From: Pelomonas sp. BJYL3
GTDB lineage: Bacteria > Pseudomonadota > Gammaproteobacteria > Burkholderiales > Burkholderiaceae_C
Assembly: GCF_027257975.1 (NCBI RefSeq)
Contig: NZ_JANZKX010000002.1
Span: 496,001 to 560,000, forward strand
DNA: 64,000 bases
Reading direction: 5' to 3'
The notes below the pieces were generated by a model that was not told the origin of the DNA, did no database searches, and was given only the letters and a program-made list of their open reading frames with translations. The position numbers and the translations under genes were made by a program. Shown piece by piece: positions 5,392 through 48,972 of the stretch (its first letter is position 1; each line of letters begins with the position of its first letter).

Positions 5392-6147
5392 TCAGCCCGC
5401 CAGCGCGCCGCCCACGAAGACCTTGAGCTCGCCGGGCTGGAAGGCCACCCAGGGCTCGTCGCGGGTCAGGGGCTCCGTGGCGATGATGGCGGCGCGGTCC
5501 AGCGGGGAGGTGTGCTGGGACAGGTCCAGGCTCAGGTCCTCGTCCTGCAGCTGCACCCGGCCGAAGGGATGCTGGCGCAGCAGGTAGTGCAGCCGGGTCG
5601 AGCCATGCGCCCACAGGGCCTGGCCGTTGGACAGCAGCATGTTGAAGGTGCCGTAGGCATTGAGGCGCGGCATCAGCTCGGCCAGGGTCAGGCTCAGCTC
5701 CTCGACGCTGGGCACGCTGCAGTGCGCCTTGGCCAGCTCCTGCATCAGCCAGCAGAAGGCCCGCTCGCTGTCGGTGTCGCCCACGGGGCGGAAGGCGGCA
5801 TGCAGGGGCGGGTGGAAGTCCTTGAGGTTGCCGTTGTGCGCGAAGACCCAGTAGCGGCCCCACAGTTCGCGCACGAAGGGATGGGTGTTCTCCAGCAAGA
5901 CCTGACCCTGCGTGGCCTTGCGGATGTGGGCGATGACGTTGTCGCTCTGGATCGGATAGTTGCGGATGAAGCCGGCCAGGGGCGAGACGCGGGCACTGTG
6001 GTGGTCCACGAAATGGCGCAGGCCGCGGCCCTCGAAGAAGGCGATGCCAAAGCCGTCCTTGTGCTCCTCGGCCCGGGTGGCAAGCCCGGTGAAGCTGAAC
6101 ATCACGTCGGTCGGCACATTGCAGTTCATGCCCAACAGCTGGCACAT
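5392..6147 (-). CDS. class II glutamine amidotransferase, YafJ-like
   Basis: A 251-residue Ntn-type amidotransferase of the YafJ group. After removal of Met1, the nucleophile would be Cys2 (MCQLLGMNCN). Family signatures follow: HKDGFGIAFF, the VIAHIRKAT segment and the FAHNGNL motif. The substrate of YafJ-type enzymes is not well established, so only glutamine-hydrolysing activity is inferred. The start at 6147 is preceded by an AAGGA-like ribosome site. It ends about 100 nt before the kinase operon and begins 14 nt after the flavoprotein gene, so it is probably co-transcribed with the latter. One copy of the dispersed 14-mer (5895-5908) lies inside it and encodes GQVLL. Confidence 0.88.
   Translation of the reverse strand: MCQLLGMNCNVPTDVMFSFTGLATRAEEHKDGFGIAFFEGRGLRHFVDHHSARVSPLAGFIRNYPIQSDNVIAHIRKATQGQVLLENTHPFVRELWGRYWVFAHNGNLKDFHPPLHAAFRPVGDTDSERAFCWLMQELAKAHCSVPSVEELSLTLAELMPRLNAYGTFNMLLSNGQALWAHGSTRLHYLLRQHPFGRVQLQDEDLSLDLSQHTSPLDRAAIIATEPLTRDEPWVAFQPGELKVFVGGALAG
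5895..5908 (+). repeat. dispersed 14-mer, copy 1 (inside yafJ-like gene)
   Basis: Exact GCAAGACCTGACCC on the plus strand. The gene is on the minus strand, where the word is read in the frame giving Gly-Gln-Val-Leu. Confidence 0.85.
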
Positions 6148-6161
6148 GGGGAGGTCCTTGC

Positions 6162-7352
6162 TTACTCGAGGAACAGGCGCCTGAGGCCCTTGAGGCTCAG
6201 CAGGGTGCCCGGGTTGCTGGTCTCGTTGAGCACGCCGCTCATGCGCTTCAGCAGGCGCGGGCTGCGCTTGGCGCGCCAGATCAGCAGGTCGGCCAGCCAG
6301 GGCGCCGCGTTGATGCGATTGGCGCGCTCATAGAGATCGTAGCGGGGCTTGAGCTCCTGCAGCACGGCTTCGTAGCGCTGGCGGGTGTCGGCGTCGTTGT
6401 GGCCCTGCAGCACGGCCTCGGCGGCGGCCATGCCCGTGGCCATGGCCTTGCCGATGCCTTCGCCGGTGAAGGAGTAGGTGCTGCCGGCGGCCTCGCCGCT
6501 GACCAGCAAGCCCGGGCGCGTCCAGCGGGCGCCCTGCAGGGTGCAGCGCAGGGGGGCGCCCTTGAGCTCGCCCTCCAGCTGGCCGTGGCGCATCAGCTCG
6601 GCCGCGGGGGGGTAGTGCTGGCAGAAGGCGTCGAACAGGGCGCGCAGGTTGACGTCCTTCTTGCGCCCCTTGCCGGCCACCGCGCTGTGGCTGTCGGTCA
6701 CGCCCACGCCGATGTTGAAGCGGCCCTCCGGCGCGGGGAAGATCCAGCCATAGCCCGGCCGGACCTCGCGCGACCACACCACCTCCATGGCCCGGATGCG
6801 GCCGACCATGGCCGGCGCGTGCACATAGCCGCGCAGGGCCACGCCGCTGGGTGTGTGGCGCTCGCACATGCCGGCGGCGATCAGGGCCTTGGGCACGGCA
6901 CCCGTGGCAAGGATGATCCAGCGGGCGCGGACTTCGCGCTCCTCGTCGCCCTGGCGCAGCACCGCGCCGCAGACGCGGCCGGTCTCGTCCTCCAGCACAC
7001 GCTCGAAGCGGGCCTGCTCGAACCGCGCGCCTCCCGCGATGGCGTGGCGGGTCAGCAACTCGTCAAGGACCTGGCGCGGCAGCACGGCCAGGCTGCCCGG
7101 CACGTCGATGCGGCCTCCGCGCGGCCCCACGCAGCCCACTTCGCCCACCGGCTGCGCCTGCGCCATCACCGCCTCCAGAAGGCCCAGGCGCTGCAGGGCC
7201 TGGTGCGCATCGGGGATCAGGCCGTCACCGCAGGTCTTGTCACGGCCGATGGGGTGCTGGTCTACGAGCAGCACCTCGCGCCCGGCCTGGGCCAGCCAGC
7301 GGGCGCAGGCGCTGCCGGCTGGGCCGGCGCCAATGATGAGGGTATCGAGCAT
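6162..7352 (-). CDS. geranylgeranyl reductase-family FAD-dependent oxidoreductase
   Basis: A 396-residue flavoprotein of the geranylgeranyl-reductase/PHBH-like superfamily. The N terminus has the FAD-binding Rossmann motif GAGPAGSACA and an acidic strand end (VLLVDQ). The family motif DKTCGDGLIP follows at about residue 40, and a second FAD motif, GEAAGSTYSFTGEGIG, lies in the C-terminal half. In Burkholderiales such proteins are usually annotated as NAD(P)/FAD-dependent oxidoreductases; the substrate (an isoprenoid or lipid double bond) cannot be decided from the sequence. The ATG at 7352 is preferred over a GTG 15 nt upstream. It is followed after 14 nt by the amidotransferase gene. Confidence 0.82.
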   Translation of the reverse strand: MLDTLIIGAGPAGSACARWLAQAGREVLLVDQHPIGRDKTCGDGLIPDAHQALQRLGLLEAVMAQAQPVGEVGCVGPRGGRIDVPGSLAVLPRQVLDELLTRHAIAGGARFEQARFERVLEDETGRVCGAVLRQGDEEREVRARWIILATGAVPKALIAAGMCERHTPSGVALRGYVHAPAMVGRIRAMEVVWSREVRPGYGWIFPAPEGRFNIGVGVTDSHSAVAGKGRKKDVNLRALFDAFCQHYPPAAELMRHGQLEGELKGAPLRCTLQGARWTRPGLLVSGEAAGSTYSFTGEGIGKAMATGMAAAEAVLQGHNDADTRQRYEAVLQELKPRYDLYERANRINAAPWLADLLIWRAKRSPRLLKRMSGVLNETSNPGTLLSLKGLRRLFLE

Positions 7353-7853
7353 CGTTTCGTGCTTCACGGGGGCAGGTGGCTGCAGGCCGGTCCGGGGTTC
7401 GGGGGGGCATTCTAGGCAGCCGGCGGATGGGCGGCCGCCGTACGAGGGGTGACCTGATGCCGGTCATGGCTGCAGGGTCCCGGAGTATGTCCCGAGGGTG
7501 GGGCCCTCCAATGGCGGCGACTCGACACGTCCACGTGGTCGGGCGGCAGTCCCAACTTGTTGCGCAGCTGACACAATTCTGACTTGGATCTGTCGGATTC
7601 AGGCGGCTGGGTCGGCGGGCGCCTTGCGGCCATTGCACCTGTATTCGCGGGCGGCGCGGCTGCGGGGGGGCGTTGATTGCTGATTTGCCACGGCTGGCGG
7701 CGCACGTCAATGCATGAATTGCACTAGCGCCGCCAGCGCCGATCTCCTAGACCATGCCGCGCTGCCTTTCAGAATCACTGCGGTACGCATGGCGACCGGG
7801 CACAGAGGGCTTCCACGAGAAGCGCCAGATCAAGCTTGATACCAGGAGAATGT
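7353..7853. other. intergenic region between divergent genes
   Basis: About 500 nt separate the flavoprotein start from the TonB-dependent receptor start. Short open frames exist on both strands, but none has family-like sequence or a ribosome site. The stretch about 7545-7600 is more AT-rich than its surroundings and is where promoters would be expected; I could not pick a convincing -35/-10 pair. No RNA gene is recognised. Confidence 0.5.
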
Positions 7854-10832: not shown

Positions 10833-10883
10833 TGAGCTGAAGCCTCGGGGCTTGCACCCCGGGGTGTCTCATCGACGCCGATC

Positions 10884-10913
10884 AGGCCCTGGGCTTCCGC
10901 CCAGGGCCTTTTT
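10884..10913 (+). terminator. intrinsic terminator of the TonB-dependent receptor gene
   Basis: An 11-bp perfect stem (AGGCCCTGGGC at 10884-10894 pairing with 10899-10909), a TTCC loop and a run of T residues. Confidence 0.9.
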
Positions 10914-11040
10914 CATTGTTCAGGGGTATCCGGGCTCCTGGCCGTGCGGCCTGCCGAACGCCTCGGGGCTTGCCCCTTGCCGGCCGGGTCGGGCCGGGAT
11001 GGGCTGCGTGGGGCTGGGCGACATTCGGTGCCCTCCATGC

Positions 11041-11075
11041 AAAGAGGGCCTGCAGCGCGTGTGCGTTGCAGGCCC
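11041..11075 (-). terminator. probable terminator of glcB
   Basis: On the minus strand a 9-bp stem (11067-11075 with 11046-11054, GGGCCTGCA/TGCAGGCCC) is followed by TCTTT. It lies about 40 nt after the glcB stop. Confidence 0.6.
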
Positions 11076-11114
11076 CCGGCAGGCCCCTTTGGGGGGCGGG
11101 TGTCGACGCGAGGG

Positions 11115-13304: not shown

Positions 13305-13335
13305 GGCAAAACCTCGTGAAGGCAAAGAAGAGGAA

Positions 13336-14025: not shown

Positions 14026-14141
14026 GTGCCCAATTTAGGCCCAAACAGGGCCTGGATTGCTGCGCTGCACACGTGGAGATTCGTGATCAAAACGCAAAGA
14101 TCCGGGCCTTTATGGTCTTCATTCCGCTTCGAGAAATCTCT

Positions 14142-14156
14142 TTTCATTCAGTGAAA
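14142..14156. promoter_or_regulatory. candidate LysR-type operator
   Basis: TTTCATTCAGTGAAA is a perfect 5-bp inverted repeat that contains the T-N11-A pattern of LysR-type binding sites. It sits in the 218-nt divergent region between the dehalogenase and LysR genes. Binding is inferred only from sequence and position. Confidence 0.45.
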
Positions 14157-16207: not shown

Positions 16208-16222
16208 GGGGTCAGGTCTTGC
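16208..16222 (-). repeat. dispersed 15-mer, copy 2 (intergenic)
   Basis: Exact GCAAGACCTGACCCC on the minus strand, between the PsiF-repeat gene and the Ser/Thr kinase gene. Confidence 0.85.
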
Positions 16223-17816: not shown

Positions 17817-19541
17817 ATGATCCAAGCCAAGCAGGAACTGCTCGCCGCCCTGGGCGAGGCCATCCACTCCCTCAGCCCCGAGGCCACCCTGGCCCCGGCC
17901 TTCGAATCGCCCAAGCAGGCCAGCCATGGCGACTACGCCTGCACGGCCGCCATGCAGCTGGCCCGCCCGCTCAAGAAGAACCCGCGCGAGCTGGCCCAGG
18001 CCCTGATCGAGGCCCTGCAGGCCAAGCCGGCCTTCCAGCGATGGGTCGAGGGCATGGAGATTGCCGGCCCCGGCTTCATCAACATCCGCCTGAAGGATGC
18101 CGCCAAGCAGGCGGTCGTCGCCGAGGTGCTGGGCGCAGGCAGCCATTTCGGCGACCGTCCGGCCACCAGCAAGCACGTGATGATCGAGTTCGTCTCGGCC
18201 AACCCGACCGGCCCGCTGCACGTGGGCCATGCCCGCCAGGCCGCGCTGGGTGATGCGATCTGCTCGCTGCTCAAGACCCAGGGCCACGATGTGACCCGGG
18301 AGTTCTACTACAACGACGCTGGCGTGCAGATCGCCACGCTGGCCCACTCCACGCAGTTGCGGCTCAAGGGCTTCAAGCCGGGCGACGCCTGCTGGCCCAC
18401 CGATCCCGACCACCCCGACAGCAAGAAGTTCTACAACGGCGACTACATCCAGGACATCGCCGACGCCTTCCTGCGCAAGGAAACGGTCAAGGCCGATGAC
18501 CGTGAGTTCACCGCCTCGGGCGATGTCGAGGACCTCGACGGCATTCGCCAGTTCGCCGTGGCCTATCTGCGTCACGAGCAGGATCTGGACCTGCAGGCCT
18601 TCGGCCTCAAGTTCGACAACTACTTCCTTGAGTCCAGCGTCTATGCCAACGGCCAGCTCGAAGCCGCGGTGCAGCGCATGATCGACAGTGGCAAGACCTA
18701 CGAGAAGGACGGCGCACTGTGGTTCCGCTCGACGGACTATGGCGACGACCAGGACCGGGTGATGCGCAAGCGCGAGGGCGGCTTCACCTATTTCGTGCCG
18801 GACGTGGCCTACCACGTCAACAAGTTCGGGCGCGGCTACACCCAGTGCATCAACATCCAGGGCACCGACCACCACGGCACCATCGCCCGCGTGCGCGGCG
18901 GCCTGCAGGCGCAGAACCTGGGCATTCCGCAGGGCTTCCCGGACTACATCCTGCACAAGATGGTCACGGTCATGAGGAACGGCGAGGAGGTCAAGATCTC
19001 CAAGCGCGCCGGCTCCTACGTGACGCTGCGCGACCTGATCGACTGGACCAGCCGCGACGCCGTGCGCTTCTTCCTGATCAGCCGCAAGGCCGACACCGAG
19101 TTCACCTTCGACGTGGACCTGGCCCTGAAGCAGAACGACGAGAACCCCGTGTTCTACGTGCAGTACGCCCATGCGCGCATCTGCTCGGTGATCCGCAAGT
19201 GGGCCGAGCAGGGCGGTGATGAAGCCGGCCTGGCCGGTGCCGACCTCAGCCTGCTGACGGCACCCACCGAGGCCGCGCTGATGCTCAAGCTGGCGGACTA
19301 CCCCCGCATGCTCAGCAGCGCCGCGCAAGACCTGGCCCCGCACGACGTGGCCTTCTACCTGCGCGACCTCTCCGGCGCCTACCACAGCTACTACGCCGCC
19401 GAGCGCGTGCTGGACCAGGCCCCCGAGCTGACCCGTGCCCGCGTGGCCCTGCTGGCGGCCACCCGTCAGGTGATCCGCAACGCCCTGGCGGTGCTGGGCG
19501 TCAGCGCGCCGGAAGTCATGGCACGCGAGGCGCTGGCCTGA
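17817..19541 (+). CDS. argS: arginyl-tRNA synthetase
   Basis: A 574-residue class I aminoacyl-tRNA synthetase that charges tRNA-Arg. The HIGH-type motif is HVGH at residues 135-138 within [15 protein letters not shown]. The N-terminal Arg-specific add-on domain and the C-terminal anticodon-binding DALR domain (ending [13 protein letters not shown] and later MAREALA) are complete. The KMSKS position is occupied by ISKRAGSYV, as in many ArgS proteins. The ATG is very close to a TAGAAT box. It is followed after 83 nt by the SPOR-domain gene and then dsbA, a conserved order in Burkholderiales. Confidence 0.97.
19325..19339 (+). repeat. near copy of the dispersed 15-mer (one mismatch)
   Basis: GCAAGACCTGGCCCC differs at one base from the eight exact copies and is translated as QDLAP in argS. 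It may be chance or an eroded copy. Confidence 0.35.
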
Positions 19542-22578: not shown

Positions 22579-24081
22579 ATGAAGCCCTCTCTGCAGGTCC
22601 GCCTATCCCAGCATCTCTCGCTGACGCCGCAGCTGCAGCAGAGCATCCGGCTGCTGCAGCTGTCGACCCTGGAGCTGAACCAGGAGGTCGAGCAGATGCT
22701 GGCCCAGAACCCCCTGCTGGAGACCGAGGAAGAGTTCGAGACCCGCCAGGAGCCGGCCCGTGCCGAGCTGCAGGCGCCCGCCAGCACGGGCGGCGATGAA
22801 GGCAGCGGCGGCGACGAAGGCGGCGAGGCCCTGGGCGAGATGCGGGCCGAGGACTTCGGCACCACCGAGCGCGAGGACTGGGAGAACGGCACCGAGGGCG
22901 ACGACTTCGACGGCATCCGCGAGCTGCCCAGCGGCAATGCGGCGCCCAGCGACGACGGCGACGAGCGCTCGGACACCGACGCCGGCACCATCAGCCTGCA
23001 GGAGCATCTGCAGGCGCAGATGGCCGGCATGAGCCTCTGCGACGAGGACCGCGCGGCCCTGCTGGTGCTGATCGAGTCTCTCAACGAGGACGGCTATCTC
23101 GAGGATCCGCTGGAGGAGATCGCCACCAGCCTCAACCCCGAGGGCGACCCTGCGGTGCAGGAAGAGCTGCTGGACCGCCTGCGCTGCGCGCTCAAGTGGC
23201 TGCAGAGCCTGGAGCCCTCCGGCGTGGGCGCGCGTGACCTCTCCGAATGCCTGGTGCTGCAGCTGCGCGCGCAGCCGCGCAGCCAGGTGCAGGCCGTGGC
23301 CATCCTGATCTGCAAGCAGCACCTGGACCTGCTGGCCAGGCGCGACCTGCGCCGCCTGGGCTCGCTGACTGGCGCCGACGAGCCCCTGCTGCGCGAGGCC
23401 CAGGCCCTGATCGCCCGCCTGGAACCCAAGCCCGGCCGCCCCTTCGTGCGCAATGTGGCGCAGGCGGTGATCCCCGATGTCATCGTGCAGAAGTCCGGCC
23501 GCGGCTTCCGGGTGATGATCAACCCGGAAGTGGCGCCCAAGCTGCGCATCAACGAGCTCTACGCCCAGGCCCTGCGCCAGACCCGCGGCGGCGTGACCAA
23601 CTCGCCGCTGGGCGGCCAGCTGCAGGAGGCGCGCTGGTTCATCAAGAACATCCAGCAGCGCTTCGACACCATCCTGCGGGTGTCCGAGGCCATCGTTGAA
23701 CGCCAGAAGGGCTTCTTCACCCACGGCGAGCTGGCGATGAAGCCCCTGGTGCTGCGCGAGATCGCCGACGAGCTCAGCCTGCACGAGTCCACCATCTCCC
23801 GCGTGACCACGGCCAAGTACATGGCCACGCCCTGGGGCACCTTCGAGCTGAAGTATTTCTTCGGCTCCGGTCTGGCCACCGAGACCGGCGGCAACGCCTC
23901 CAGCACGGCGGTGCGGGCGCTGATCAAGCAGTTCGTGGCGGCCGAGGATCCGAAGAAGCCGCTGTCCGACAGCGCCCTGGCCAGCATGCTGGAGGAGCAG
24001 GGCATCCAGGTGGCGCGCCGAACGGTGGCCAAGTACCGCGAGGCCCTCAAGATCGCGCCGGCCAATATGCGCAAGACCTGA
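22579..24081 (+). CDS. rpoN: RNA polymerase sigma-54 factor
   Basis: A 500-residue sigma-54. Region I is the Gln/Leu-rich N terminus (LSLTPQLQQSIRLLQLS), followed by an acidic linker (about residues 55-145), the core-binding domain and the DNA-binding domain ending with the RpoN box ARRTVAKYRE at residues 479-488. It directs transcription from -24/-12 promoters with AAA+ activators. The gene lies 12 nt after lptB. The last codons and TGA stop (ATG CGC AAG ACC TGA) are part of a dispersed 14-mer, and a second copy follows 14 nt later, so the extreme C terminus appears to have been rewritten by this repeat. Confidence 0.97.
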   Translation: MKPSLQVRLSQHLSLTPQLQQSIRLLQLSTLELNQEVEQMLAQNPLLETEEEFETRQEPARAELQAPASTGGDEGSGGDEGGEALGEMRAEDFGTTEREDWENGTEGDDFDGIRELPSGNAAPSDDGDERSDTDAGTISLQEHLQAQMAGMSLCDEDRAALLVLIESLNEDGYLEDPLEEIATSLNPEGDPAVQEELLDRLRCALKWLQSLEPSGVGARDLSECLVLQLRAQPRSQVQAVAILICKQHLDLLARRDLRRLGSLTGADEPLLREAQALIARLEPKPGRPFVRNVAQAVIPDVIVQKSGRGFRVMINPEVAPKLRINELYAQALRQTRGGVTNSPLGGQLQEARWFIKNIQQRFDTILRVSEAIVERQKGFFTHGELAMKPLVLREIADELSLHESTISRVTTAKYMATPWGTFELKYFFGSGLATETGGNASSTAVRALIKQFVAAEDPKKPLSDSALASMLEEQGIQVARRTVAKYREALKIAPANMRKT

Positions 24082-24084
24082 CCC
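24071..24084 (+). repeat. dispersed 14-mer, copy 3 (overlaps rpoN stop)
   Basis: Exact GCAAGACCTGACCC; the TGA at 24079-24081 is the rpoN stop codon. Confidence 0.85.
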
Positions 24085-24098
24085 TCCGGGCCTGGCGC

Positions 24099-24113
24099 GC
24101 AAGACCTGACCCC
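24099..24113 (+). repeat. dispersed 15-mer, copy 4 (downstream of rpoN)
   Basis: Exact GCAAGACCTGACCCC, in direct orientation to copy 3, between rpoN and the LysR gene. Confidence 0.85.
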
Positions 24114-24138: not shown

Positions 24139-25086
24139 ATGGACCAGCTCAAGGCGATGCGCGTGTTCGCGCGGGTGATCGACGAAGGCAGCTTCGCCGG
24201 CGCCGCCCGCGCCCTGGACCTGGCCCCCGCCGTGGTGACCCGCCTGGTGGCCGACCTCGAGGAGCACCTGGGCGCACGGCTCCTGAACCGCACCACCCGC
24301 CGCCTGGCCCTCACCGAGGTGGGCGAGGCCTACCTGGAGCGCTGCCGCCGCGTGCTGATGGAGCTGGAGGACGCCCAGGCCCTGGTGCAGTCCGCCACGC
24401 ACGAGGCGCGAGGCCATGTGCGGGTGCTGGTGCCGCCGGCTATCGCCGTGCACCAGCTGGCCAAGCACCTGGCCCGCTTCCACCAGCAGTACCCGCACGT
24501 GACCCTGGAGCTGCATTCGCCGGGCCCGGTGACGCAGATCGACGAGGCTTTCGACATCAGCGTCATCAGCACCAAGGAGCCGCTGCAGGGCGACTTCGTG
24601 GCGCGGCGCCTGGCGCGCACCGAGGTCATCCTCTGCGCCGCGCCGGAATACCTGCAGCGGCGCGGCCGGCCGCAGCATCCGGTGGAGCTGCAGCAGCATG
24701 ACGTGTTGGTGCCGCCCGTGGCCATCCAGCAGCGCGGCATCGTCTTCGTGCGGGGGCGGCGCGAGGCGCCCGAGGAGCGCATCGAGGGCGAATGCCGCCG
24801 CGGCGTGCTGACCACCGGCCACAACGACACCAACTACGCCGCTGCCCTGCACGGCCTGGGCATCGCGGCCTTGCCGTCCTTCATGATCGAGGACGCGCTG
24901 CTGGAGCATGCGCTGGAGCGCGTGATGCCGCAGTGGCACATGCAGAGCTACGACCTCTGGGCCGCCATGCCTTCGCGCAAGTTCCTGCCGGCGCGCACGC
25001 GGGTCTTCCTCGACTTCCTGGTCAGCATCTTCGGCGGCCAGGACCACGACCCCTGGCTGGAGGCCGCCGGCTGCGCGACCCGCTGA
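24139..25086 (+). CDS. LysR-family transcriptional regulator
   Basis: A 315-residue LysR-type regulator starting MDQLKAMRVFARVIDEGSFA. The N-terminal HTH continues with AVVTRLVADLEEHLGARLLN and TTRRLALTEVGEAYLERCR; the periplasmic-binding-protein-like effector domain covers about residues 90-300. It belongs to the AaeR/DsdC-like broad LysR group that begins MDQL/MDRL. It lies 57 nt after rpoN on the same strand and converges with amgK, so its target is not obvious from context. No operator could be assigned. Confidence 0.9.
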   Translation: MDQLKAMRVFARVIDEGSFAGAARALDLAPAVVTRLVADLEEHLGARLLNRTTRRLALTEVGEAYLERCRRVLMELEDAQALVQSATHEARGHVRVLVPPAIAVHQLAKHLARFHQQYPHVTLELHSPGPVTQIDEAFDISVISTKEPLQGDFVARRLARTEVILCAAPEYLQRRGRPQHPVELQQHDVLVPPVAIQQRGIVFVRGRREAPEERIEGECRRGVLTTGHNDTNYAAALHGLGIAALPSFMIEDALLEHALERVMPQWHMQSYDLWAAMPSRKFLPARTRVFLDFLVSIFGGQDHDPWLEAAGCATR

Positions 25087-30873: not shown

Positions 30874-30875
30874 CC

Positions 30876-40506: not shown

Positions 40507-40535
40507 GCCCTGCGCCGTCCGGCGACAATCGCCGC

Positions 40536-41510
40536 ATGAGTGCAAGCCTGGGTGAATTCGAGCTGATCCGCCGTTTCTTCGACCGCGGGGATCGCGCCGC
40601 GGACGGCGTGGTCAAGGGCATCGGTGATGACTGCGCCGTGCTGGCGCCCACGCCGGGCTGGCAGTGGCTGGTCTCGACCGACATGCTGGTCGAGGGCCGG
40701 CACTTCCTCTCCACTGTCGACCCCGAGCGCCTGGGCCACAAGGCCCTGGCCGTCAACCTCAGCGATCTGGCCGCCTGCGGCGCCACGCCCCGGGCCTTCT
40801 TCCTGGCCCTGGCCCTGCCGCGCGCCGATGCGACGTTCCTGGAAGGCTTCGCCCGCGGCCTCTTCGCTCTGGCCGACGCCCACGGCATTGCCCTCGCCGG
40901 CGGGGACACCACGGCGGGCCCGCTGAACATCTGCATCACCGTGATGGGCGAGGCACCGCAGGGTCAGGTCTTGCTGCGCAGCGGTGCCCGGCCCGGTGAC
41001 GAGCTCTGGATCAGCGGCACCCTGGGCGACGCGCGCCTGGCCCTGGAGGTCTTCCGCGGCACGCTCTCGCTGCCCGGTGAGCAGTTCGCCCAGGTGCGCC
41101 GCGCCATGGAGCTGCCCCGGCCGCGCCTGGCCCTGGGCCAGGCCCTGCGCGGCATCGCCAGCAGCGCCATCGATGTGTCGGACGGCCTGGGCGGCGATCT
41201 GGGCCATGTGCTGAAGGCCTCCGGCGTGGGCGTGGAGCTGCAGGTCGACGCCCTGCCGCGCAGCGCCGTCCTGGCCGCGCAAGACCCGGTCCTGCAGCTG
41301 GAATGCCTGCTCGCCGGCGGGGACGACTACGAGCTGGTCTTCACGGCGCCGGCCGATCGCCATCAGGCCGTGCGTGAGGCCGCAGCCCGCGCCGGCACGC
41401 CGGTGAGCTGCGTGGGCCGCATCAGCGCCGAACCGGGCCTGCGCCTGCTGGATGCCCAGGGTCAGCCGATGGCCCGCCGTTTCGCGTCCTTCGACCATTT
41501 CAAGAGCTGA
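40536..41510 (+). CDS. thiL: thiamine-monophosphate kinase
   Basis: A 324-residue ATP-dependent kinase that makes thiamine diphosphate from thiamine monophosphate in the cytoplasm. Family signatures: the N-terminal GEFELIRRFF, GIGDDCAVL, STDMLVEGRHF, the GGDTT motif (ALAGGDTTAGP) and SDGLGGDLGH. The length matches bacterial ThiL. The gene begins 30 nt after the response regulator and is tightly followed by pgpA (2-nt gap), a common pair in Proteobacteria. A dispersed 14-mer copy (40961-40974) encodes GQVLL in it. Confidence 0.95.
   Translation: MSASLGEFELIRRFFDRGDRAADGVVKGIGDDCAVLAPTPGWQWLVSTDMLVEGRHFLSTVDPERLGHKALAVNLSDLAACGATPRAFFLALALPRADATFLEGFARGLFALADAHGIALAGGDTTAGPLNICITVMGEAPQGQVLLRSGARPGDELWISGTLGDARLALEVFRGTLSLPGEQFAQVRRAMELPRPRLALGQALRGIASSAIDVSDGLGGDLGHVLKASGVGVELQVDALPRSAVLAAQDPVLQLECLLAGGDDYELVFTAPADRHQAVREAAARAGTPVSCVGRISAEPGLRLLDAQGQPMARRFASFDHFKS
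40961..40974 (-). repeat. dispersed 14-mer, copy 5 (inside thiL)
   Basis: Exact GCAAGACCTGACCC on the minus strand; the plus-strand gene reads it as GQVL. Confidence 0.85.
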
Positions 41511-41512
41511 GC

Positions 41513-42151
41513 ATGAGTGAGCAGCAAGACCTGACCCCCGAGGCAACGGACGACAGCGGCGCGCCCCTGCGCCCGGATGACGTGCACATGGCCGACGCCA
41601 CGCCCAGCAGCGCGGCGCCCGCCGGCATGGCTCCGCGCCGCGCCACGGTGGGCTTCATGCTGCGCCATCCGGCCCGCTGGATCGCCCTGGGCTTTGGCAG
41701 CGGCCTCTCGCCCGTGGCGCCGGGCACAGTGGGCACGCTGTGGGCCTGGCTGAGCTTCGTGCTGCTGCGGCCGCATCTGGCGGAGCTGCAATGGCTGCTG
41801 CTGATCGCGGTGGGCACCCTGGTGGGCGTGTGGGCCTGCACGCGCTGCGCCCAGCACCTGGGCGTGGCGGACCCGGGCTCCATCGTCTGGGACGAGATCC
41901 TGGCCTTCTGGCTGGTCCTGTGCCTGGTGATGCCCGTGGGCTTCGGCGGCCAGCTGCTGGCCTTCGGGCTCTTCCGCTACTTCGACGCGGCCAAGCCCGG
42001 GCCCGTGCGGTGGGCGGACGGCCTGTTCAAGTGCAGGCCCGGCGAGGCCATCGGCTGGCGCCAGGGGCTGGGCATCTTGTTGGACGATTTCGTGGCCGCT
42101 GGATGTACCCTCGTGGTGTTGGCGCTGTGGCGCTTCACCATCGGAGGATGA
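41513..42151 (+). CDS. pgpA: phosphatidylglycerophosphatase A
   Basis: A 212-residue inner-membrane PgpA-type phosphatase that dephosphorylates phosphatidylglycerophosphate in phosphatidylglycerol synthesis. Recognisable segments: GFGSGLSPVAPGTVGTL, the acidic VWDEILAFWLVL and FFRYFD-like LFRYFDAAKPGPVRW. Hydrophobic helices alternate with these loops. The N-terminal ~45 residues (MSEQQDLTPEATDDSGAP onward) are an acidic, poorly conserved extension; the dispersed 15-mer (41524-41538) encodes QQDLTPE in this extension. The stop overlaps a possible pncC start (ATGA). Confidence 0.93.
   Translation: MSEQQDLTPEATDDSGAPLRPDDVHMADATPSSAAPAGMAPRRATVGFMLRHPARWIALGFGSGLSPVAPGTVGTLWAWLSFVLLRPHLAELQWLLLIAVGTLVGVWACTRCAQHLGVADPGSIVWDEILAFWLVLCLVMPVGFGGQLLAFGLFRYFDAAKPGPVRWADGLFKCRPGEAIGWRQGLGILLDDFVAAGCTLVVLALWRFTIGG
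41524..41538 (+). repeat. dispersed 15-mer, copy 6 (5' end of pgpA)
   Basis: Exact GCAAGACCTGACCCC, read as QDLTP in the variable N-terminal extension of PgpA. Confidence 0.85.
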
Positions 42152-42156
42152 CCATC

Positions 42157-42657
42157 ATGCTGTGCCCTGACGAACCCGAACTGATCGAACGCATCGCCCT
42201 GGCCCTCATCCAGCGCCGCGAGCGCATGGGCACGGCCGAGTCCTGCACCGGCGGGCTCATCGCCGCGGCCTGCACCAGCCTGGCCGGCTCCAGCCAGTGG
42301 TTCGAGCGCAGCGTGGTCAGCTACAGCAACCAGGCCAAGACCGAGATGCTGGGCGTGCCGCCGGGCCTGCTGGAGCTGCACGGCGCCGTCAGCGCCGAGG
42401 TGGCGCAGAGCATGGCGCGCGGCCTGTACGCCCATGCGCCCGTCGAGTGGACCCTGGCCGTGACCGGCATCGCCGGGCCCAGCGGCGGCAGCGAGGACAA
42501 GCCCGTGGGCACGGTCTGGCTGGCGCTGTACCACCACGGCAAGCCCATCAAGGTCTGGCAGGAGCTGTTCAAGGGCGACCGTCATGCCGTGCGAGCGGCC
42601 ACCGTCCGCGTGGGCCTGGCAGCCCTGTGCGAGGCCCTGGAGGACCGGGACAGCTGA
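42157..42657 (+). CDS. pncC: nicotinamide-nucleotide amidase (CinA C-terminal family)
   Basis: A 166-residue PncC/CinA C-terminal-domain protein that deamidates NMN to nicotinic acid mononucleotide in NAD salvage. Motifs: GTAESCTGGLIAAACTS with the catalytic Ser region, VVSYSNQAKTEMLGV and AVTGIAGPSGGSEDKPVGTV. GGAGG is positioned 9 nt before the ATG at 42157; an ATG at 42148 overlaps the pgpA stop but sits directly on the ribosome site. Its stop overlaps the ghrA start by one base (TGATG). The four genes thiL-pgpA-pncC-ghrA look like one operon. Confidence 0.92.
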   Translation: MLCPDEPELIERIALALIQRRERMGTAESCTGGLIAAACTSLAGSSQWFERSVVSYSNQAKTEMLGVPPGLLELHGAVSAEVAQSMARGLYAHAPVEWTLAVTGIAGPSGGSEDKPVGTVWLALYHHGKPIKVWQELFKGDRHAVRAATVRVGLAALCEALEDRDS

Positions 42658-43616
42658 TGGCGATTCTCCTGTGTGGTGCCTGGGCGCTGGACCAGCCCGA
42701 AGGCCGGGCCGAGCAGCAGCGCTGGCTGCAGGCCCTGCAGCAGGCCCTGCCGGGCGAGGACTGGGTGCTTCAGGCGCCCGAGGACCCGGCGCAGGCCGCG
42801 GCCATCGAGATTGCCGTGGTGGCCAACCCGCCGCCCGGCAGCCTGCAGGGCCTGCCGCGCCTGGCCTTGATCCAGTCCCTGTGGGCGGGCGTGGACCGGC
42901 TGATGCAAGACCTGACCCTGCCGGCCGGCATCCCCCTGTGCCGCATGGTCGACCCAGCCATGAACGAGGCCATGGTGCAGACGGCGCTGTGGGCCACCCT
43001 GGCCCTGCACCGCGGCTTCTTCCAGTGCCAGCAGCAGCAGTGCGCGGCGCAGTGGCGCCAGCCGCCGCAGCTGCGTGCGGCCGAATGGCAGGTGCTGGTG
43101 CTGGGGCAGGGCGAGCTGGGCGGCCGCGTGGCCCGCAGCCTGGCCGGCCTGGGCTACGCCGTCTCGGGCTGGAGCCGCCGGCCCAGGACACATGAAGGCG
43201 TGCAGGGCCTGCATGGCGAAGACGGCCTGGCCCGGGGCCTGGCCGCGGCGGACACGGTGATCAACCTGCTGCCGCTCACCGACGAGACCCGCGGCTTCTT
43301 CGACGCCCGGCGACTGGACGCCTTCAAGCGGGGCGCCAGCCTCATCAATCTGGCGCGCGGCGCCCATGTCGACGAGCAGGCCCTGCTGGCGGCCCTGGAC
43401 ACGGGCCACGTCGGGCATGCGGTGCTGGATGTCTTCCGCCACGAGCCGCTGCCGGCGCCCCATCCCTTCTGGTCGCACCCGCGGGTGACGGTCCTGCCCC
43501 ACACGGCGGCGCAGACCGATCCGCGCTCGGCGGCCGAGGTGGTGGCGTCCAATGTCAGGGCGCTGCGCAGCGGAACGACATTGCAGCACCGGGTCGAGCG
43601 CAGCCAGGGCTACTGA
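42657..43616 (+). CDS. ghrA: glyoxylate/hydroxypyruvate reductase A-like dehydrogenase
   Basis: A 319-residue D-isomer-specific 2-hydroxyacid dehydrogenase of the GhrA group. The NAD(P)-binding motif is VLVLGQGELGGRVARSL, with the following WSRRP typical of NADPH preference; catalytic residues lie in INLARGAHVDEQAL (Arg), DVFRHEPLP (Glu) and LPHTAAQTD (His). It would reduce glyoxylate to glycolate or hydroxypyruvate to glycerate. The start overlaps the pncC stop. A dispersed 14-mer copy (42905-42918) encodes MQDLTLP between the substrate-domain blocks. Confidence 0.9.
   Translation: MAILLCGAWALDQPEGRAEQQRWLQALQQALPGEDWVLQAPEDPAQAAAIEIAVVANPPPGSLQGLPRLALIQSLWAGVDRLMQDLTLPAGIPLCRMVDPAMNEAMVQTALWATLALHRGFFQCQQQQCAAQWRQPPQLRAAEWQVLVLGQGELGGRVARSLAGLGYAVSGWSRRPRTHEGVQGLHGEDGLARGLAAADTVINLLPLTDETRGFFDARRLDAFKRGASLINLARGAHVDEQALLAALDTGHVGHAVLDVFRHEPLPAPHPFWSHPRVTVLPHTAAQTDPRSAAEVVASNVRALRSGTTLQHRVERSQGY
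42905..42918 (+). repeat. dispersed 14-mer, copy 7 (inside ghrA)
   Basis: Exact GCAAGACCTGACCC, read as QDLT in a surface-type segment of the dehydrogenase. Confidence 0.85.
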
Positions 43617-43725
43617 AGCGCCCGGCCCGCCGCCCCGCAGGCGGGTGTGCGTCCCTGAAGCGGGGCTTCTCAAGCGCGGCGGCCCTGCGTTAGCCTTGGG
43701 CTTCGTCGTCGGGATGTAAAACACC

Positions 43726-46518
43726 ATGGACTGGCTTCGCAGGCCTGCGCTGTTTCCGGGTCGCCTGGCATCGGCTGTCGCGGGTGTCGATGCGCCCCCG
43801 TCCCTGCCGCTGCTGGCGCTGGCCCGGCGGGCCTGGGCCGAGCGCCAGCTGGACAGCCGCCAGGCCCTGTCCTGGGCCGCCGCCGTGCTGGAAGGCCTGC
43901 CCACGCTGGACCTTCCCGCGGCCGACGCCCGCCTGCTGGGCGCCCGCATGACCCTGGTCCGGGCCGAGATTCATCTGCAGCAGCTGCGCCTGGACGAGGC
44001 CGAGCAGGGCATGAAGGCGGCGCGTGCGCAGTTCGAGGCCTGCAGCGACGACTGCGGGCTGGCCGATGCCTGCTGGCTCGAGCACATCCTGGCCAGTGAC
44101 CGCGGCGACACCCAGGGCCTGCGCCGCGCCTTGCTGGACGCCCTGGCCTGCGCCGAGCGGGCCGCCGAGCCGGACCGCGCGCTGTTCCTGCGCATCGTGC
44201 TGGCCCGGTCCGACATGTTCCGGGACGCCGAAGAGGCGCGCCAGGCCTGGGCCGGCCGCCTGCCTGAATCCATCGAAGGACTCTCGCCGATGTGCGCCGC
44301 GGCCCTGGCCGACTACCTCGGCGTCCGCGAGGGGCTGCTGTCGCATTTCTCGCTGTCCGCCACCTGGCTCGAGCAGGGATTCGAACTGGCACTGGCCTCC
44401 GGGCAGCTGCGCCGGGCCATGGCCCTGGCCTCGAACCTGGGCTACACCTTCACCGCGTCGTCGGACTATGCCCGCGCCATCGACTGGCTGCAGCGCGGCC
44501 TGGAGCTGGCCCGGCGTGCCGGCTGGCCCGGCTCCATCGGCCTGTGCCTGGCGCAGACCGGCGAGGCCATGCGCCGCGTCGGGCAGGTGGGAGCGGCGCG
44601 CGAGCTGCTGCAGGAGTGCCTCGACACCCTGTCCGGCCACCCCGACAGCCGCACCATCCTGCTGGCCCTGAGCTATCTGGGCCAGGTGGAACTGGACTCC
44701 GGCCATGCGCCGCAAGCCCTGACCCTGTTCGAGACCCTGGTCCGGCGCGCCCTGCTGGTGGGCTCCAGCGACCTGCGCCTGGACGGCGAGCTGGGCCGTG
44801 CGCGCTGCCTGCTGCGTCTGCAGCGCCCGGCTGAAGCGCGGGCCGCGGCCCAGGGCGCGCAAGACCTGGCACGCCAGCTGCAGCAGCAGGCCCTGCAGGT
44901 GGAACTGCTGTGGCTGCAGGCGGCCATCGCGCGCGCGGCTGCGGCGCCGCCGGCCGAAGTGCTGGACGGGCTGCTGGAGGCCTCGCAACTGGCCGCGGTG
45001 ATCGAAGGCTACCGCCCGCCGCCGGCCCTGCTCGAGGAGACGGCCGAGGCCCTGGCCGCCGCCGGCCGGCACCAGGAGGCCTATGCGAGCGCACGGCAGG
45101 CGGCCCGGGTGCGCAAGGACAGCCTCAGCGACGAAGCCGCCAAGCGCGCCGCCGCCCTGCAGCTGCACCAGCAGATCGAGACCCTGGCCGCGGAGCGCGA
45201 GCATCTGCGCCGCCTGGCCGAGGCGGAGTCGGCCCGCGCGCGGGCCCTGGAGGATGCGCAGCAGGTGCTCAGCCACCTGAGCCGCGTGGGGCAGGAGATC
45301 ACGGCCGAGCTGGTGGCCGAGCGGGTGTTCGATTCGCTGGAGCGCCATGTGCACGCCATGCTGCACGTGGCCTGCATGGCCATCTACCTGCTCGACGAGG
45401 CCGGCACCCAGCTCTACTGCGCCTTTGGCGTGGAGGAAGGCCAGCCCTTCGTGGACCCGCCCGTGCCGGTGGACGCGCCGCACAGCTACTGCGCACGCTG
45501 CGTGCGGGAGCGCTGCAGCTTCGTCCTGGGCGTGGACGAGCAGCCGCATGCAGACTCGCAGGTGCCAGGCACCAGCCAGATGCTCAGCGTGATGTTCGCG
45601 CCGCTGATGATCGGCGAGCGCGTGGTGGGCGTGATGACCGTGCAGTCGCCGCGCGCCGCGGCCTACGGCCAGCGCGAAGAGCTCATCTTCTCCAGCCTCT
45701 GTGCCTACGCGGCCATCGCGCTGGACAACGCGCGCGCCTACCAGCGCCTGTCCGAGCTGCAGCGGCACGTGATGGCCCAGGAGAAGCTGGCCGCCCTGGG
45801 CGCGATGGTGGCCGGCGTGGCCCATGAGCTGAACACCCCCATCGGCAACAGCCTGCTGGTGTCCTCGGCCCTGCTCAGCGATGCGCGCGACTTCGAGGCC
45901 CGCGTGAACCGCGAGCCCCTGCGCCGCAGCGACTGGCAGCAGCACGCCACGCGGTCCCGCGAGGGCCTGGAGGTCATCGAGCGCTGCATGGACACCGCGG
46001 CGGCCCTGGTGCGCAGCTTCAAGCAGGTGGCGGTGGATCGCAGTGCGGAGCAGCGCCGGCGCTACGAGCTGCTGGAGCTGTGCCAGCAATGCCACCAGAG
46101 CCTGGGCCTGATGCTGCGCCGCGCGGGCGTGCAGCTGGACATCGCGGTGCCGGCGGGCCTGCTCCTGCACGGCTACCCGGGTGCGCTGAGCCAGGTACTG
46201 GTCATCCTCATCAACAACGCCGTCACGCACGCCTTCGACGGGCGCGAGCAGGGCCTGATGCGCCTGGAGGCGCAGCTCAACGGGCCGCACCAGGTCCAGC
46301 TGAGCCTGCGGGACGACGGCGCCGGCATGAGCCCGGCCGTGCTCAAGCGGGTGTTCGAGCCCTTCTTCACCACCAAGTTCGGGCAGGGGGGCAGCGGCCT
46401 GGGCCTGTCGATCTGCCTCAACATCGTCGAGACCCTGCTGGGGGGGCGCATCCGGGTCAGCAGCGAACCGGGCCAGGGCAGCTGCTTCACGCTGGAACTG
46501 CCGCTGATCGCCCCCTGA
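43726..46518 (+). CDS. orphan histidine kinase with TPR-like, coiled-coil and GAF domains
   Basis: A 930-residue soluble sensor kinase. Residues about 30-470 are helical TPR-like repeats (SDYARAIDWLQRGLELARRA and later AAGRHQEAYASARQAARVRK), a coiled coil covers about 470-525, and a GAF domain lies at about 530-680. HisKA carries His700 in GVAHELNTPIGNS, and the ATPase domain has INNAVTHAFDG, DDGAGMSP and GGSGLGLSIC. No membrane helix is seen, and no response regulator gene adjoins it. The layout recalls adenylate-cyclase/guanylate-cyclase-type TPR sensor proteins. The signal is unknown; TPRs suggest a protein input. Confidence 0.88.
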   Translation: MDWLRRPALFPGRLASAVAGVDAPPSLPLLALARRAWAERQLDSRQALSWAAAVLEGLPTLDLPAADARLLGARMTLVRAEIHLQQLRLDEAEQGMKAARAQFEACSDDCGLADACWLEHILASDRGDTQGLRRALLDALACAERAAEPDRALFLRIVLARSDMFRDAEEARQAWAGRLPESIEGLSPMCAAALADYLGVREGLLSHFSLSATWLEQGFELALASGQLRRAMALASNLGYTFTASSDYARAIDWLQRGLELARRAGWPGSIGLCLAQTGEAMRRVGQVGAARELLQECLDTLSGHPDSRTILLALSYLGQVELDSGHAPQALTLFETLVRRALLVGSSDLRLDGELGRARCLLRLQRPAEARAAAQGAQDLARQLQQQALQVELLWLQAAIARAAAAPPAEVLDGLLEASQLAAVIEGYRPPPALLEETAEALAAAGRHQEAYASARQAARVRKDSLSDEAAKRAAALQLHQQIETLAAEREHLRRLAEAESARARALEDAQQVLSHLSRVGQEITAELVAERVFDSLERHVHAMLHVACMAIYLLDEAGTQLYCAFGVEEGQPFVDPPVPVDAPHSYCARCVRERCSFVLGVDEQPHADSQVPGTSQMLSVMFAPLMIGERVVGVMTVQSPRAAAYGQREELIFSSLCAYAAIALDNARAYQRLSELQRHVMAQEKLAALGAMVAGVAHELNTPIGNSLLVSSALLSDARDFEARVNREPLRRSDWQQHATRSREGLEVIERCMDTAAALVRSFKQVAVDRSAEQRRRYELLELCQQCHQSLGLMLRRAGVQLDIAVPAGLLLHGYPGALSQVLVILINNAVTHAFDGREQGLMRLEAQLNGPHQVQLSLRDDGAGMSPAVLKRVFEPFFTTKFGQGGSGLGLSICLNIVETLLGGRIRVSSEPGQGSCFTLELPLIAP

Positions 46519-46542
46519 TCGCCCGCTGGTTGCGGGATCGGA

Positions 46543-48972
46543 TCAGCTCAGGCCCGCGAACAGCGACTCCGGCGGATCCTCGGCGTCGAGGGCCGGTGGC
46601 TTCCACTGCTCCAGCCAGTCCACGAACTGGGCCTCGGGCATGGGCTTGCTGATGAAGTAGCCCTGGCCCTCGTCACAGCCCAGGCGAGCCAGGATTTGCC
46701 AGGCCCGCAGGGTCTCCAGCCCTTCGGCCACCACCGACAGCCCGAGGTTGTGGGCCAGCTCGACGGTGGAGCGCACGATCTTGGCGTCGTCCAGGTCGCG
46801 CTCCATGGCCATCACGAAGCTCTTGTCGATCTTCAGCTCGTCCACGGGCAGGCGCTTCAGGTAGGCCAGCGAGGAGTAGCCGGTGCCGAAGTCGTCGATG
46901 CTCAGCTTGAAGCCCATGGCGGACAGTTGCTCCAGCGTGCTCAGCGCGCGGGCGGGGTCGTCCATGATGGCGCTCTCGGTGATCTCCAGGCACAGCGCCG
47001 AGGGCGGCACGCCCTCGGCCTCGATGGCGGCGCGGATCTTCAGGGGCAGGTCCTGGTCCATCAGGTCGCGCGTCGAGAGATTGACGCTGATGCGCAAGAC
47101 CTGACCCCGCTCGCGGGCCTGCCGCCAGGCGCGGGCCGAGGCGGCCACCACCCAGGCGCTGAGTTGGCGGATGAAGCCGGTCTGTTCCGCGAAGGGGATG
47201 AACTGCATGGGCGGCACCAGGCCGCGCTGCGGATGCTCCCAGCGCACCAGGGCCTCGGCGCTGATGACCTGGCCGCTGCGCAGGTCCACCTTGGGCTGCA
47301 GGAAGAGGCGCAGCTGGCCGCCCTCGACCGCCCGGCGCAGCTCGCCCAGCAGACTCAGGGACTCCTGGCTGCCCGCGTCCAGGCTGGGGCTGTAGAGCTG
47401 GCTGCCGCTTTGACGCTGCTTGGCGGCGTACATGGCCAGCTCGGCCCGGCTCAGCAGGCTGCTGGCGTCGCGGGCCTGGCGCGGGTAGAGCACGATGCCG
47501 ATGCCGGCACCCAGGTCCACCGTCTGATCCTCGATGTGCAGGGACTGCTCGAAGTCGCGCTGGATGCGCTGGGCCATGGCCAGCGCGGCCTCCTCGTCGG
47601 CGCCGTCCAGCAGCAGCGCGAACTCGTCGCCGCCCAGTCGTGCCAGCAGGCTCTGGGAGCCTCGGCACAGCTCGCTGAGCCGCGCGGCCACGCCGCACAG
47701 CAGCTGGTCGCCCAGCCGGTGGCCCAGCACGTCGTTGACATGCTTGAAGCGGTCCAGGTCCAGCATCAGCACGGCGCAGGGTGCCTCGCTGGCCTGCAGG
47801 CGCTCCTGCAGGCGCTGGCTGAACTGCTCACGGTTGGGCAGGCCGGTCAGCGGGTCCCAGTAGGCCAGGCGATGGACCTGCTCCTCGCGCTCGCGGATGC
47901 CCAGGCGCATGGCCTCGAAGCTGCGGGCCAGCTCGGCCACCTCGCCGAGGTCGGAGCCCGAGGCCACGGGCGTGTCATAGTCGCCCGCGCCCAGTCGCAG
48001 TGCCGATTGCGTCAGCGAGGCGATGGGGCGGCTGATGCGCCGCGCGGTGAAGACGCTGCCCATGGCGAAGGCGGCGATGCCCGCGGCCGTCAGGGCCAGC
48101 AGGGACCACTGCAGCTGGCGGTAGGGCGCCACCGCTTCGTCGAAGGAGGCCCACATCACCGCGCCGATCTGGCGCTTGCCGGCCAGCTCCTGCGGCAGGG
48201 GCAGCAGGCGCACCCGCCAGTGCTGCCCGCCCCATTCGCGCCGCAGGGACTGCCCCGGGCTCAGCTCCGCCATGGCGCTGGTGAAGGCGGGGCCGCGCTC
48301 GGCGTCTTCCACCACGGAGACGCTTTCCTGCCAGCGCCCGCGCTCCCCGGTGACGAACATGGCGTCGACGTTGATCAGGCGCTTGAGGTCCAGCAGCGGC
48401 ACTTCATCGAGCCGGAAGCCCATCAGCACATGGCCGATGGTCATGGGGGCGCGGACCGGCACGGTGACCACCTGCATGATCTCGCGGTCCACCAGGACGA
48501 GGGTGGCCTGCTCGGGGTCCGGGTCCTGGCGCTTGAGCAGGGGCAGGTAGAGCTCGGCCTGGTCGCGGGTGGCGGCCACCAGCTGGCCCGTCACGTTGGC
48601 ATAGGCCACCAGCGAGGCGTTGACGCGCTCGCCGTTGTTGTGAAGGGCGTCGCGCAGGGTCTCGATGTCGACCTGCTCGGACGGGCCCTGGCTGCGGCCC
48701 ACGGCCTCGCGGAAACCGTAGTCCGCGGCCAGCAGCTCGGCAGCGGCCCGCTCGCGGGCGGCCTGCTGGACGAGCAGCCGCTGCAGCATGCGCCCCGCGG
48801 TGGCCAGCTTGGCCTCGATGGCGGCCTCGGCGTTGGCCTCGATGCTGTGGCCGATGAAGCCGAAGCTGGCGAGCTGGATCAGCAGCAGCAGCCCCAGGAA
48901 CAGGGCCACGATGCGGCCCTCGATGCGGCGCGGGTTGAGGAAGGCCGGCAGTTGCGGGGACCCCATCAGCAT
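46543..48972 (-). CDS. membrane GGDEF-EAL protein (cyclic-di-GMP turnover)
   Basis: An 809-residue protein with an N-terminal membrane helix (about residues 21-44), a periplasmic sensor region to about residue 280, a second helix, a HAMP domain (RRISRPIASLTQSALRLGAG), GGDEF and EAL domains. The diguanylate-cyclase site is intact (GGDEF at residues 447-451), as is the phosphodiesterase signature EAL at 573-575 with DDFGTGYSSLAYL later, so both activities are possible. It starts only 7 nt after the stop of a cupredoxin-like periplasmic protein gene and is surely co-transcribed with it. One dispersed 15-mer copy lies inside (47094-47108). ATG 48972; another at 48966. Confidence 0.92.
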   Translation of the reverse strand: MLMGSPQLPAFLNPRRIEGRIVALFLGLLLLIQLASFGFIGHSIEANAEAAIEAKLATAGRMLQRLLVQQAARERAAAELLAADYGFREAVGRSQGPSEQVDIETLRDALHNNGERVNASLVAYANVTGQLVAATRDQAELYLPLLKRQDPDPEQATLVLVDREIMQVVTVPVRAPMTIGHVLMGFRLDEVPLLDLKRLINVDAMFVTGERGRWQESVSVVEDAERGPAFTSAMAELSPGQSLRREWGGQHWRVRLLPLPQELAGKRQIGAVMWASFDEAVAPYRQLQWSLLALTAAGIAAFAMGSVFTARRISRPIASLTQSALRLGAGDYDTPVASGSDLGEVAELARSFEAMRLGIREREEQVHRLAYWDPLTGLPNREQFSQRLQERLQASEAPCAVLMLDLDRFKHVNDVLGHRLGDQLLCGVAARLSELCRGSQSLLARLGGDEFALLLDGADEEAALAMAQRIQRDFEQSLHIEDQTVDLGAGIGIVLYPRQARDASSLLSRAELAMYAAKQRQSGSQLYSPSLDAGSQESLSLLGELRRAVEGGQLRLFLQPKVDLRSGQVISAEALVRWEHPQRGLVPPMQFIPFAEQTGFIRQLSAWVVAASARAWRQARERGQVLRISVNLSTRDLMDQDLPLKIRAAIEAEGVPPSALCLEITESAIMDDPARALSTLEQLSAMGFKLSIDDFGTGYSSLAYLKRLPVDELKIDKSFVMAMERDLDDAKIVRSTVELAHNLGLSVVAEGLETLRAWQILARLGCDEGQGYFISKPMPEAQFVDWLEQWKPPALDAEDPPESLFAGLS
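47094..47108 (+). repeat. dispersed 15-mer, copy 8 (inside GGDEF-EAL gene)
   Basis: Exact GCAAGACCTGACCCC; the minus-strand gene reads it as RGQVLR. Confidence 0.85.

What the first reader, a model, noticed from the sequence alone, without database searches (positions are those of the whole stretch)
5895..47108. A 14-15 bp word, GCAAGACCTGACCC(C), is dispersed through genes and intergenic DNA
I find eight exact copies: 5895-5908, 16208-16222, 24071-24084, 24099-24113, 40961-40974, 41524-41538, 42905-42918 and 47094-47108, on both strands. By a rough base-composition estimate fewer than 0.01 would be expected by chance in 64 kb. Five copies lie inside unrelated genes (yafJ-like, thiL, pgpA, ghrA, GGDEF-EAL), always in one of two frames that give GQVL or QDLT and never in the frame with a TGA. 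Four copies carry the extra C (15-mer). This looks like a sequence that is either mobile at very small size (for example a relic of REP-type elements moved by a RAYT transposase) or selected genome-wide, such as a DNA-uptake word or a protein-binding site.
Basis: partly seen in the sequence, partly recalled or inferred. Interest (0 to 1): 0.75.

Follow-up and report, generated by a model that had tools for sequence, protein, structure and literature searches.

The report
Genome-wide 15-base DNA-uptake-like word
A group of Burkholderiales bacteria carries the same 15-letter DNA word tens to hundreds of times, mostly written into existing sequence rather than inserted, and it looks like a further case of the 'self' tags that some competent bacteria use to choose which DNA to take up.

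Summary
GCAAGACCTGACCC occurs 8 times in the window and 331 times in the 5.24 Mb genome (172/159 by strand; reversed control 0). It is the commonest 14-mer in 864 kb sampled; position 15 is C or T and other flanks are random. Of 39 copies in DNA compared with a sister species, 30 align without a gap, so they arose in place; six have a gap in or at the word. All 14 alignable copies of the sister are exact in the host. All 30 QDLT peptides in 411,002 residues are spelt by the word, so the DNA drives the peptide. There is no replication- or gene-strand bias. Word-rich genomes are mostly one rpoB clade (13 of 17). This matches DNA uptake sequences of Neisseriaceae/Pasteurellaceae. The REP/RAYT-relic idea fails for nearly all copies, although the same word flanks RAYT genes in other phyla; why is unexplained. 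Best reading: an uptake-sequence-like word (about 0.58), untested by experiment; ComP-type pilins and ComEC are present but equally so in word-poor relatives.

The parts
5895..5909 (+). exact word + T, inside a class-II glutamine amidotransferase gene (5392-6147 -), read as GQVL
   Evidence: sister G154 has one mismatch at the same place
16208..16222 (-). exact 15-mer (+C); gene context not settled (overlapping ORFs)
24071..24085 (+). exact word + T whose TGA is the stop codon of the sigma-54 (rpoN) gene 22579-24081
24099..24113 (+). exact 15-mer (+C) between rpoN and a LysR-type gene (24139-25086); direct pair with 24071, 28 bp apart; exact in sister G154
40960..40974 (-). exact word + T inside the AIR-synthase-like (thiL-like) gene 40536-41510, read as GQVL
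   Evidence: one mismatch each in G028 and G154
41524..41538 (+). exact 15-mer (+C) at the start of the pgpA gene 41513-42151, read as QDLT; 14-mer exact in G028 and G154 while flanks vary
42905..42919 (+). exact word + T in the 2-hydroxyacid dehydrogenase (ghrA-like) ORF 42297-43616, read as QDLT; exact in G028, 6 mismatches in G154
47094..47108 (+). exact 15-mer (+C) in the dCache-HAMP-GGDEF-EAL gene 46543-48972 -, read as GQVL; 14-mer exact in G028 and G154, one mismatch in G007
19325..19338 (+). one-mismatch copy GCAAGACCTGGCCC (A11G, the commonest degenerate form)
44712..44725 (+). one-mismatch copy GCAAGCCCTGACCC

Best explanation
The word GCAAGACCTGACCCY is a genome-wide duplex-DNA recognition signal of a Burkholderiales clade. 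It most probably works as a DNA uptake sequence: a surface receptor of the type IV pilus/competence machinery prefers DNA fragments that contain the word, taken-up fragments recombine into the chromosome, and so the word is maintained and multiplied (molecular drive plus selection) in permissive places of genes and between genes. Shown here: copy number, consensus, origin in place at most compared sites, conservation above flanks, DNA-level origin of the encoded peptides, strand symmetry, clustering mostly in one clade, degenerate copies in neighbours. Inferred: that the recognising machine is DNA uptake.
For: 331 copies, 172/159 by strand, control 0. Commonest 14-mer of 864 kb: 74 against 0.01-0.64 by Markov models of order 1-6. 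80 one-mismatch copies there, and random flanks except Y at position 15. In-place origin: of 39 host words in the compared stretch 31 align end to end, 30 of them gap-free; 14 of 30 are exact in G154 against 21.9% of 2,241 nearby (overlapping) 14-mers (p 0.002); 14 of 14 alignable G154 words are exact in the host. Eight of the 16 host-only copies differ from G154 at 3-9 of 14 bases, and word surroundings are more divergent (86.2% against 88.0%): both traits are described for neisserial DUS in PMC2397512 (abstract and passages). QDLT: 30 of 30 spelt with the word's codons, 0.74 expected from codon use; GQVL 36 of 64, 0.05 expected. No replication-strand bias (47 leading, 52 lagging by GC skew, p 0.69) or gene-strand bias (40 same, 34 opposite, p 0.56). 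31 of 105 outside predicted genes against 10% non-coding. 70 of 105 words lie in the 132 of 272 5-kb windows with GC >= 0.70. 13 of 17 word-rich genomes on one side of a fully supported rpoB branch. The word holds CCTGA; all neisserial DUS dialects keep CTG (passages). ComP_DUS-family pilin in 67 of 68 and ComEC in 33 of 35 family genomes examined.
Against: ComP_DUS pilin (18 of 19 word-rich, 49 of 49 others) and ComEC (16 of 18 word-rich, 17 of 17 others) do not separate users from non-users; G036 (51 copies) and G182 (50) gave no ComEC hit, though G160 and G077 of the same genera did. One exact copy per 16 kb is sparser than the thousands per genome stated for DUS/USS (passage). A host NRPS/PKS-type cluster (C1:811-871 kb; Pfam) holds ten words, and the part tested (C1:860001-868000) has only short weak hits in G154 and G007, whereas neisserial DUS are absent from recently acquired genes; two 5-kb windows of 58-62% GC also hold two words. 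Six of 36 sites with aligned DNA on both sides have a gap in or at the word, one of them a 32-base gap in G154. The three pairs closer than 50 bp are all direct, not inverted. In G102 the C of CTG is often changed. G030, inside the clade, has no exact copies but keeps ComEC and ComP-type pilins. Four word-rich genomes lie outside the main clade. No competence was shown here.
Confidence: 0.58

Rival explanations
1. The word is the site of another duplex-DNA-binding protein with a chromosomal role (nucleoid structure, segregation, recombination), kept by selection and unrelated to DNA uptake.
For: Strand-symmetric, genome-wide, conserved, and the recogniser is unknown.
Against: Chromosome-organising sites that I recall are either palindromic (matS, parS, Noc, SlmA) or strand-polar (KOPS, Chi); this word is neither. 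Many gains at diverged sites and near-exponential spacing without positional pattern suit drive by uptake better.
Confidence: 0.2
2. The word is maintained by a RAYT/TnpA-REP single-strand nuclease: a domesticated RAYT recognises it and the genome keeps hundreds of target sites.
For: The same 15-mer, including C or T at position 15, flanks RAYT genes in many phyla. Each of the 18 near-complete word-rich genomes examined has at least one Y1_Tnp gene, in 17 of them about 7 to 14 kb from a ComP-type pilin.
Against: Where read, the conserved-locus RAYT carries other end words, for example GGGGTCAGACTC or GGGGTCAGAGTC. A second Y1_Tnp gene was not detected by PF01797 in G007, G013, G036, G160, G077, G182, G062 and G174, which hold 14-180 words. 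40 of the 49 other genomes examined also have a Y1_Tnp gene, and the same gene placement is seen in G030 and G034. Dispersed copies lack shared flanks and mostly lack insertion boundaries.
Confidence: 0.12
3. The copies are relics of small mobile REP-type insertions.
For: The word is a RAYT end word elsewhere, and G139 (Scleromatobacter) has 70 copies, arrays beside a RAYT gene among them. Six of 36 host sites have a gap in or at the word.
Against: 30 of 36 host copies with aligned DNA on both sides have no gap; the gapped ones read lie in variable DNA and show no clean word-sized insertion (one of them not read). G139 has 70 exact and only 2 one-mismatch copies, whereas the clade has nearly as many or more one-mismatch than exact copies. 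Flanks are random.
Confidence: 0.02
4. Protein-level constraint: the copies only encode common peptides.
For: Most in-gene copies read QDLT or GQVL (61 of 74).
Against: QDLT is 5.6-fold commoner than its residues predict and is spelt by the word in 30 of 30 cases. 31 of 105 copies lie outside predicted genes. Orthologues lacking the word carry other sequence at the site.
Confidence: 0.01

Closest known systems
Neisseriaceae DNA uptake sequence (DUS) and its dialects
   Same: Short asymmetric duplex word on both strands, in genes and between genes, conserved above flanks, in permissive sites, many new copies too diverged for point mutation, clade-wide inheritance, CTG inside.
   Different: Different and longer word (15 against 10-12 bp, partly recalled), another order, lower density, direct rather than inverted close pairs, word-rich accessory cluster, no uptake data.
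Pasteurellaceae uptake signal sequence (USS)
   Same: Same general behaviour (abstract and passages).
   Different: Unrelated sequence; USS core and its AT-rich flanks are recalled, and no such flanks are seen here.
RAYT-associated REP / IS200-like end repeats
   Same: The identical word stands beside RAYT genes across phyla.
   Different: There the copies sit in inverted or tandem arrays beside RAYT genes; the host's copies are mostly single, mostly inside genes, and mostly arose in place.
Chi and KOPS polar sites
   Same: Short over-represented words.
   Different: They are biased to the leading strand (recalled); this word is not.

Membership tests
DNA uptake sequence (DUS/USS) | Strong genome-wide over-representation of one asymmetric word on both strands | tested here: met
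   331 copies, 172/159, control 0; top 14-mer
DNA uptake sequence (DUS/USS) | Copies arise in place (substitution/recombination), not as insertions | tested here: met
   30 of 36 copies with aligned DNA on both sides gap-free; alignments; six gapped, five of them read
DNA uptake sequence (DUS/USS) | Word more conserved than its permissive flanks | tested here: met
   14/30 exact vs 21.9%; 14/14 reverse; flanks 86.2% vs 88.0%
DNA uptake sequence (DUS/USS) | Rare in recently acquired DNA | tested here: inconclusive
   Fewer words at lower GC (9 in 48 windows below 0.68, 18.5 expected), but an NRPS/PKS-type cluster, tested part absent from G154, is word-rich
DNA uptake sequence (DUS/USS) | Cognate receptor pilin that binds the word | tested here: inconclusive
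   ComP_DUS-family pilins in 67 of 68 genomes, users and non-users alike; binding not testable
DNA uptake sequence (DUS/USS) | Word raises DNA uptake or transformation | not testable with these tools
   needs experiment
REP/RAYT element | Insertion of a discrete element with shared internal sequence | tested here: not met
   random flanks; no gap at 30 of 36 sites
REP/RAYT element | Element ends match the host's RAYT gene ends | tested here: not met
   L009 ends differ; beside L010 only one- and two-mismatch variants
Chi/KOPS | Leading-strand polarity | tested here: not met
   47 leading vs 52 lagging by GC skew

The most novel reading that the evidence does not exclude
A RAYT transposon end word and a chromosome-wide uptake word are the same 15-mer because one was made from the other: either these bacteria adopted a RAYT end word as their uptake signal, or RAYT elements copied an uptake word to be taken up preferentially by competent cells and so spread between phyla.
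Probability: 0.25. Interest if true: 0.9.

Novelty: new variant of a known kind. Interest (0 to 1): 0.76.

Why it matters
The two lineages described in the papers seen here as having self-recognising uptake words are Neisseriaceae and Pasteurellaceae. A further lineage, with graded states (rich, mostly degenerate, none) across neighbouring genera, would let one ask how uptake specificity starts, drifts and dies. The identity of the word with RAYT ends is a lead on where such words come from.

Tried and rejected
Mobile REP relic: rejected for most compared copies. Protein constraint: rejected. Polar replication sites: rejected. RNA-level role: no gene-strand bias. ComP_DUS pilin and ComEC as markers of word users: not discriminating. 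First rpoB tree discarded because some rows were wrong-strand ORFs; redone (60 rows; G036 and G160 gave no rpoB hit; six genomes with hits were not fetched). L142 as a synteny anchor failed; C1:400001-1200000 (66 words) gave no aligned bases against the G154 stretch held, so only the 39 words of C12:160001-720000 could be compared: 30 gap-free, one with a gap inside, five with aligned DNA on both sides but a word end in a gap, two aligned on one side only, one in DNA not aligned at all. Nine sites were read one by one: mostly variable DNA, one 32-base gap over the word, no clean word-sized insertion; the site at C12:633666 was not read. G154's 13 other words lie in DNA without aligned flanks. 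An rpoB search of plasmids to name the host gave no close match. Literature: the word and complements gave 2 papers, both on donkey casein genes (listing seen); CAAGACCTGAC and GTCAGGTCTTG had no occurrence in the 25 of 1,830 papers listed; no uptake word in Burkholderiales appeared in the listings. That is not proof of absence: the library is open-licence only.

Full report
The observation. The eight copies are at the stated places, four followed by C and four by T. The genome holding the window (G000, 5.24 Mb, 28 contigs) has 331 exact copies, 172 forward and 159 reverse, with none of the reversed control. In 864 kb of it (C1:400001-1200000 plus the window) the word is the most frequent of all 14-mers, 74 copies against Markov expectations of 0.01 to 0.64. 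Another 80 copies there have one mismatch, chiefly A11G (23), A6G (11) and G1T (9). Flanking bases are unconserved except position 15, C 40 or T 34.

How the copies arose. In orthologous DNA of the sister species G028 and G154 and of other genera most of the six window sites examined align without gaps to sequences with none to several substitutions. On a larger scale, 560 kb of G000 (39 words) was set against 800 kb of G154. Thirty words align gap-free; one has a gap inside; five more have aligned DNA on both sides but a word end in a gap; three lack aligned DNA on one or both sides. Of the 30, 14 are exact in G154, 8 differ by one or two bases and 8 by three to nine. Exact conservation (14 of 30) exceeds that of nearby 14-mers (21.9% of 2,241; p 0.002). 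In the other direction all 14 alignable G154 words (of 27) are exact in G000; the other 13 lie in DNA without aligned flanks. So words are kept once present, and the extra ones are host-side gains or G154-side losses; those with many differences look like gains.

DNA, not protein. In 1,052 crudely predicted genes (411,002 residues) QDLT occurs 30 times and every one is spelt CAAGACCTGACC, where codon use predicts 0.74; GQVL occurs 64 times, 36 spelt with the word's codons where 0.05 is expected. At the rpoN gene the word's TGA is the stop codon. Of 105 words in 1.36 Mb, 40 lie along the gene, 34 against it and 31 outside predicted genes. Of 99 words, 47 are on the leading and 52 on the lagging strand as judged by the mean GC skew of two large stretches, a rough guide.

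Who has it. Of 200 genomes of the family 48 have at least one exact copy and 19 have 14 or more. Of 369 genomes drawn across the class 62 have one, and apart from G000 the highest count is 20, including closely spaced opposite-strand copies. An rpoB tree of 60 genomes puts 13 of 17 word-rich rows, with G034 (7 copies) and G030 (none), on one side of a fully supported branch; G062, G174, G102 and G139 fall on the other side. The tree as drawn needs five changes, its well-supported branches force two. With one mismatch allowed G034 rises from 7 to 122 and G062 from 20 to 201 (controls 2 and 3), so they hold mostly degenerate copies; G139 only rises from 70 to 72.

The RAYT link. Double copies of the word occur in bacteria of many phyla (116 stretches, scan stopped at its limit, many of them metagenome bins). 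In 19 of the 116 a relative of the host's RAYT is encoded (tblastn), and in 10 of these 19 (L014, L015, L016, L047, L061, L092, L097, L098, L108, L110) words stand on both sides of it in inverted orientation; the examples read are followed by C or T, as in the host. The host has two Y1_Tnp genes; one has other end words, the other has one- and two-mismatch versions nearby. The link is real but does not explain the dispersed copies.

Interpretation. Asymmetry, strand symmetry, in-place origin, conservation above permissive flanks, diverged gains and clade-wide inheritance are the traits reported for neisserial DUS (PMC2397512, PMC3630211: abstract and passages seen). The word holds CCTGA, and CTG is the invariant DUS core. 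ComP-family pilins and ComEC are present but not diagnostic. Points against are listed under the best explanation, above all the word-rich NRPS/PKS-type cluster, the gapped sites and the lack of any experiment. PMC4212676 (passages) is on natural transformation in Verminephrobacter, recalled to be of the same order; the passages seen discuss sequence-specific uptake only as a possibility there.

Noticed in passing
L009 (G000:C22:454685-458005) and L258, L259, L261, L262, L263, L266, L270, L274, L276, L278: A RAYT gene about 7 to 14 kb from a ComP-type pilin gene in 17 of 18 near-complete word-rich genomes and also in G030 and G034; where read, its ends carry other words such as GGGGTCAGACTC. 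In L009 the neighbours look like gltB and dgt (read by eye, not searched).
   Followed up: partly
L009, L258, L259, L262; one- or two-mismatch versions in L261, L263, L266, L274, L276, L278: One word site in what looks like the glutamate synthase gene next to this RAYT has similar immediate flanks in several genera, exact or with one or two mismatches.
   Followed up: partly
G000:C1:811325-871329: NRPS/PKS-type genes hold ten words in different protein contexts; the part tested has no real match in sister G154.
   Followed up: partly
window 22579-24113: The word supplies the stop codon of rpoN and a second copy follows 28 bp on.
   Followed up: yes
L010 (G000:C1:1023673-1026996): A second RAYT gene with GCAAGGCCTGACCCC and GCAACACCTGGCCCC on one side.
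   Followed up: no
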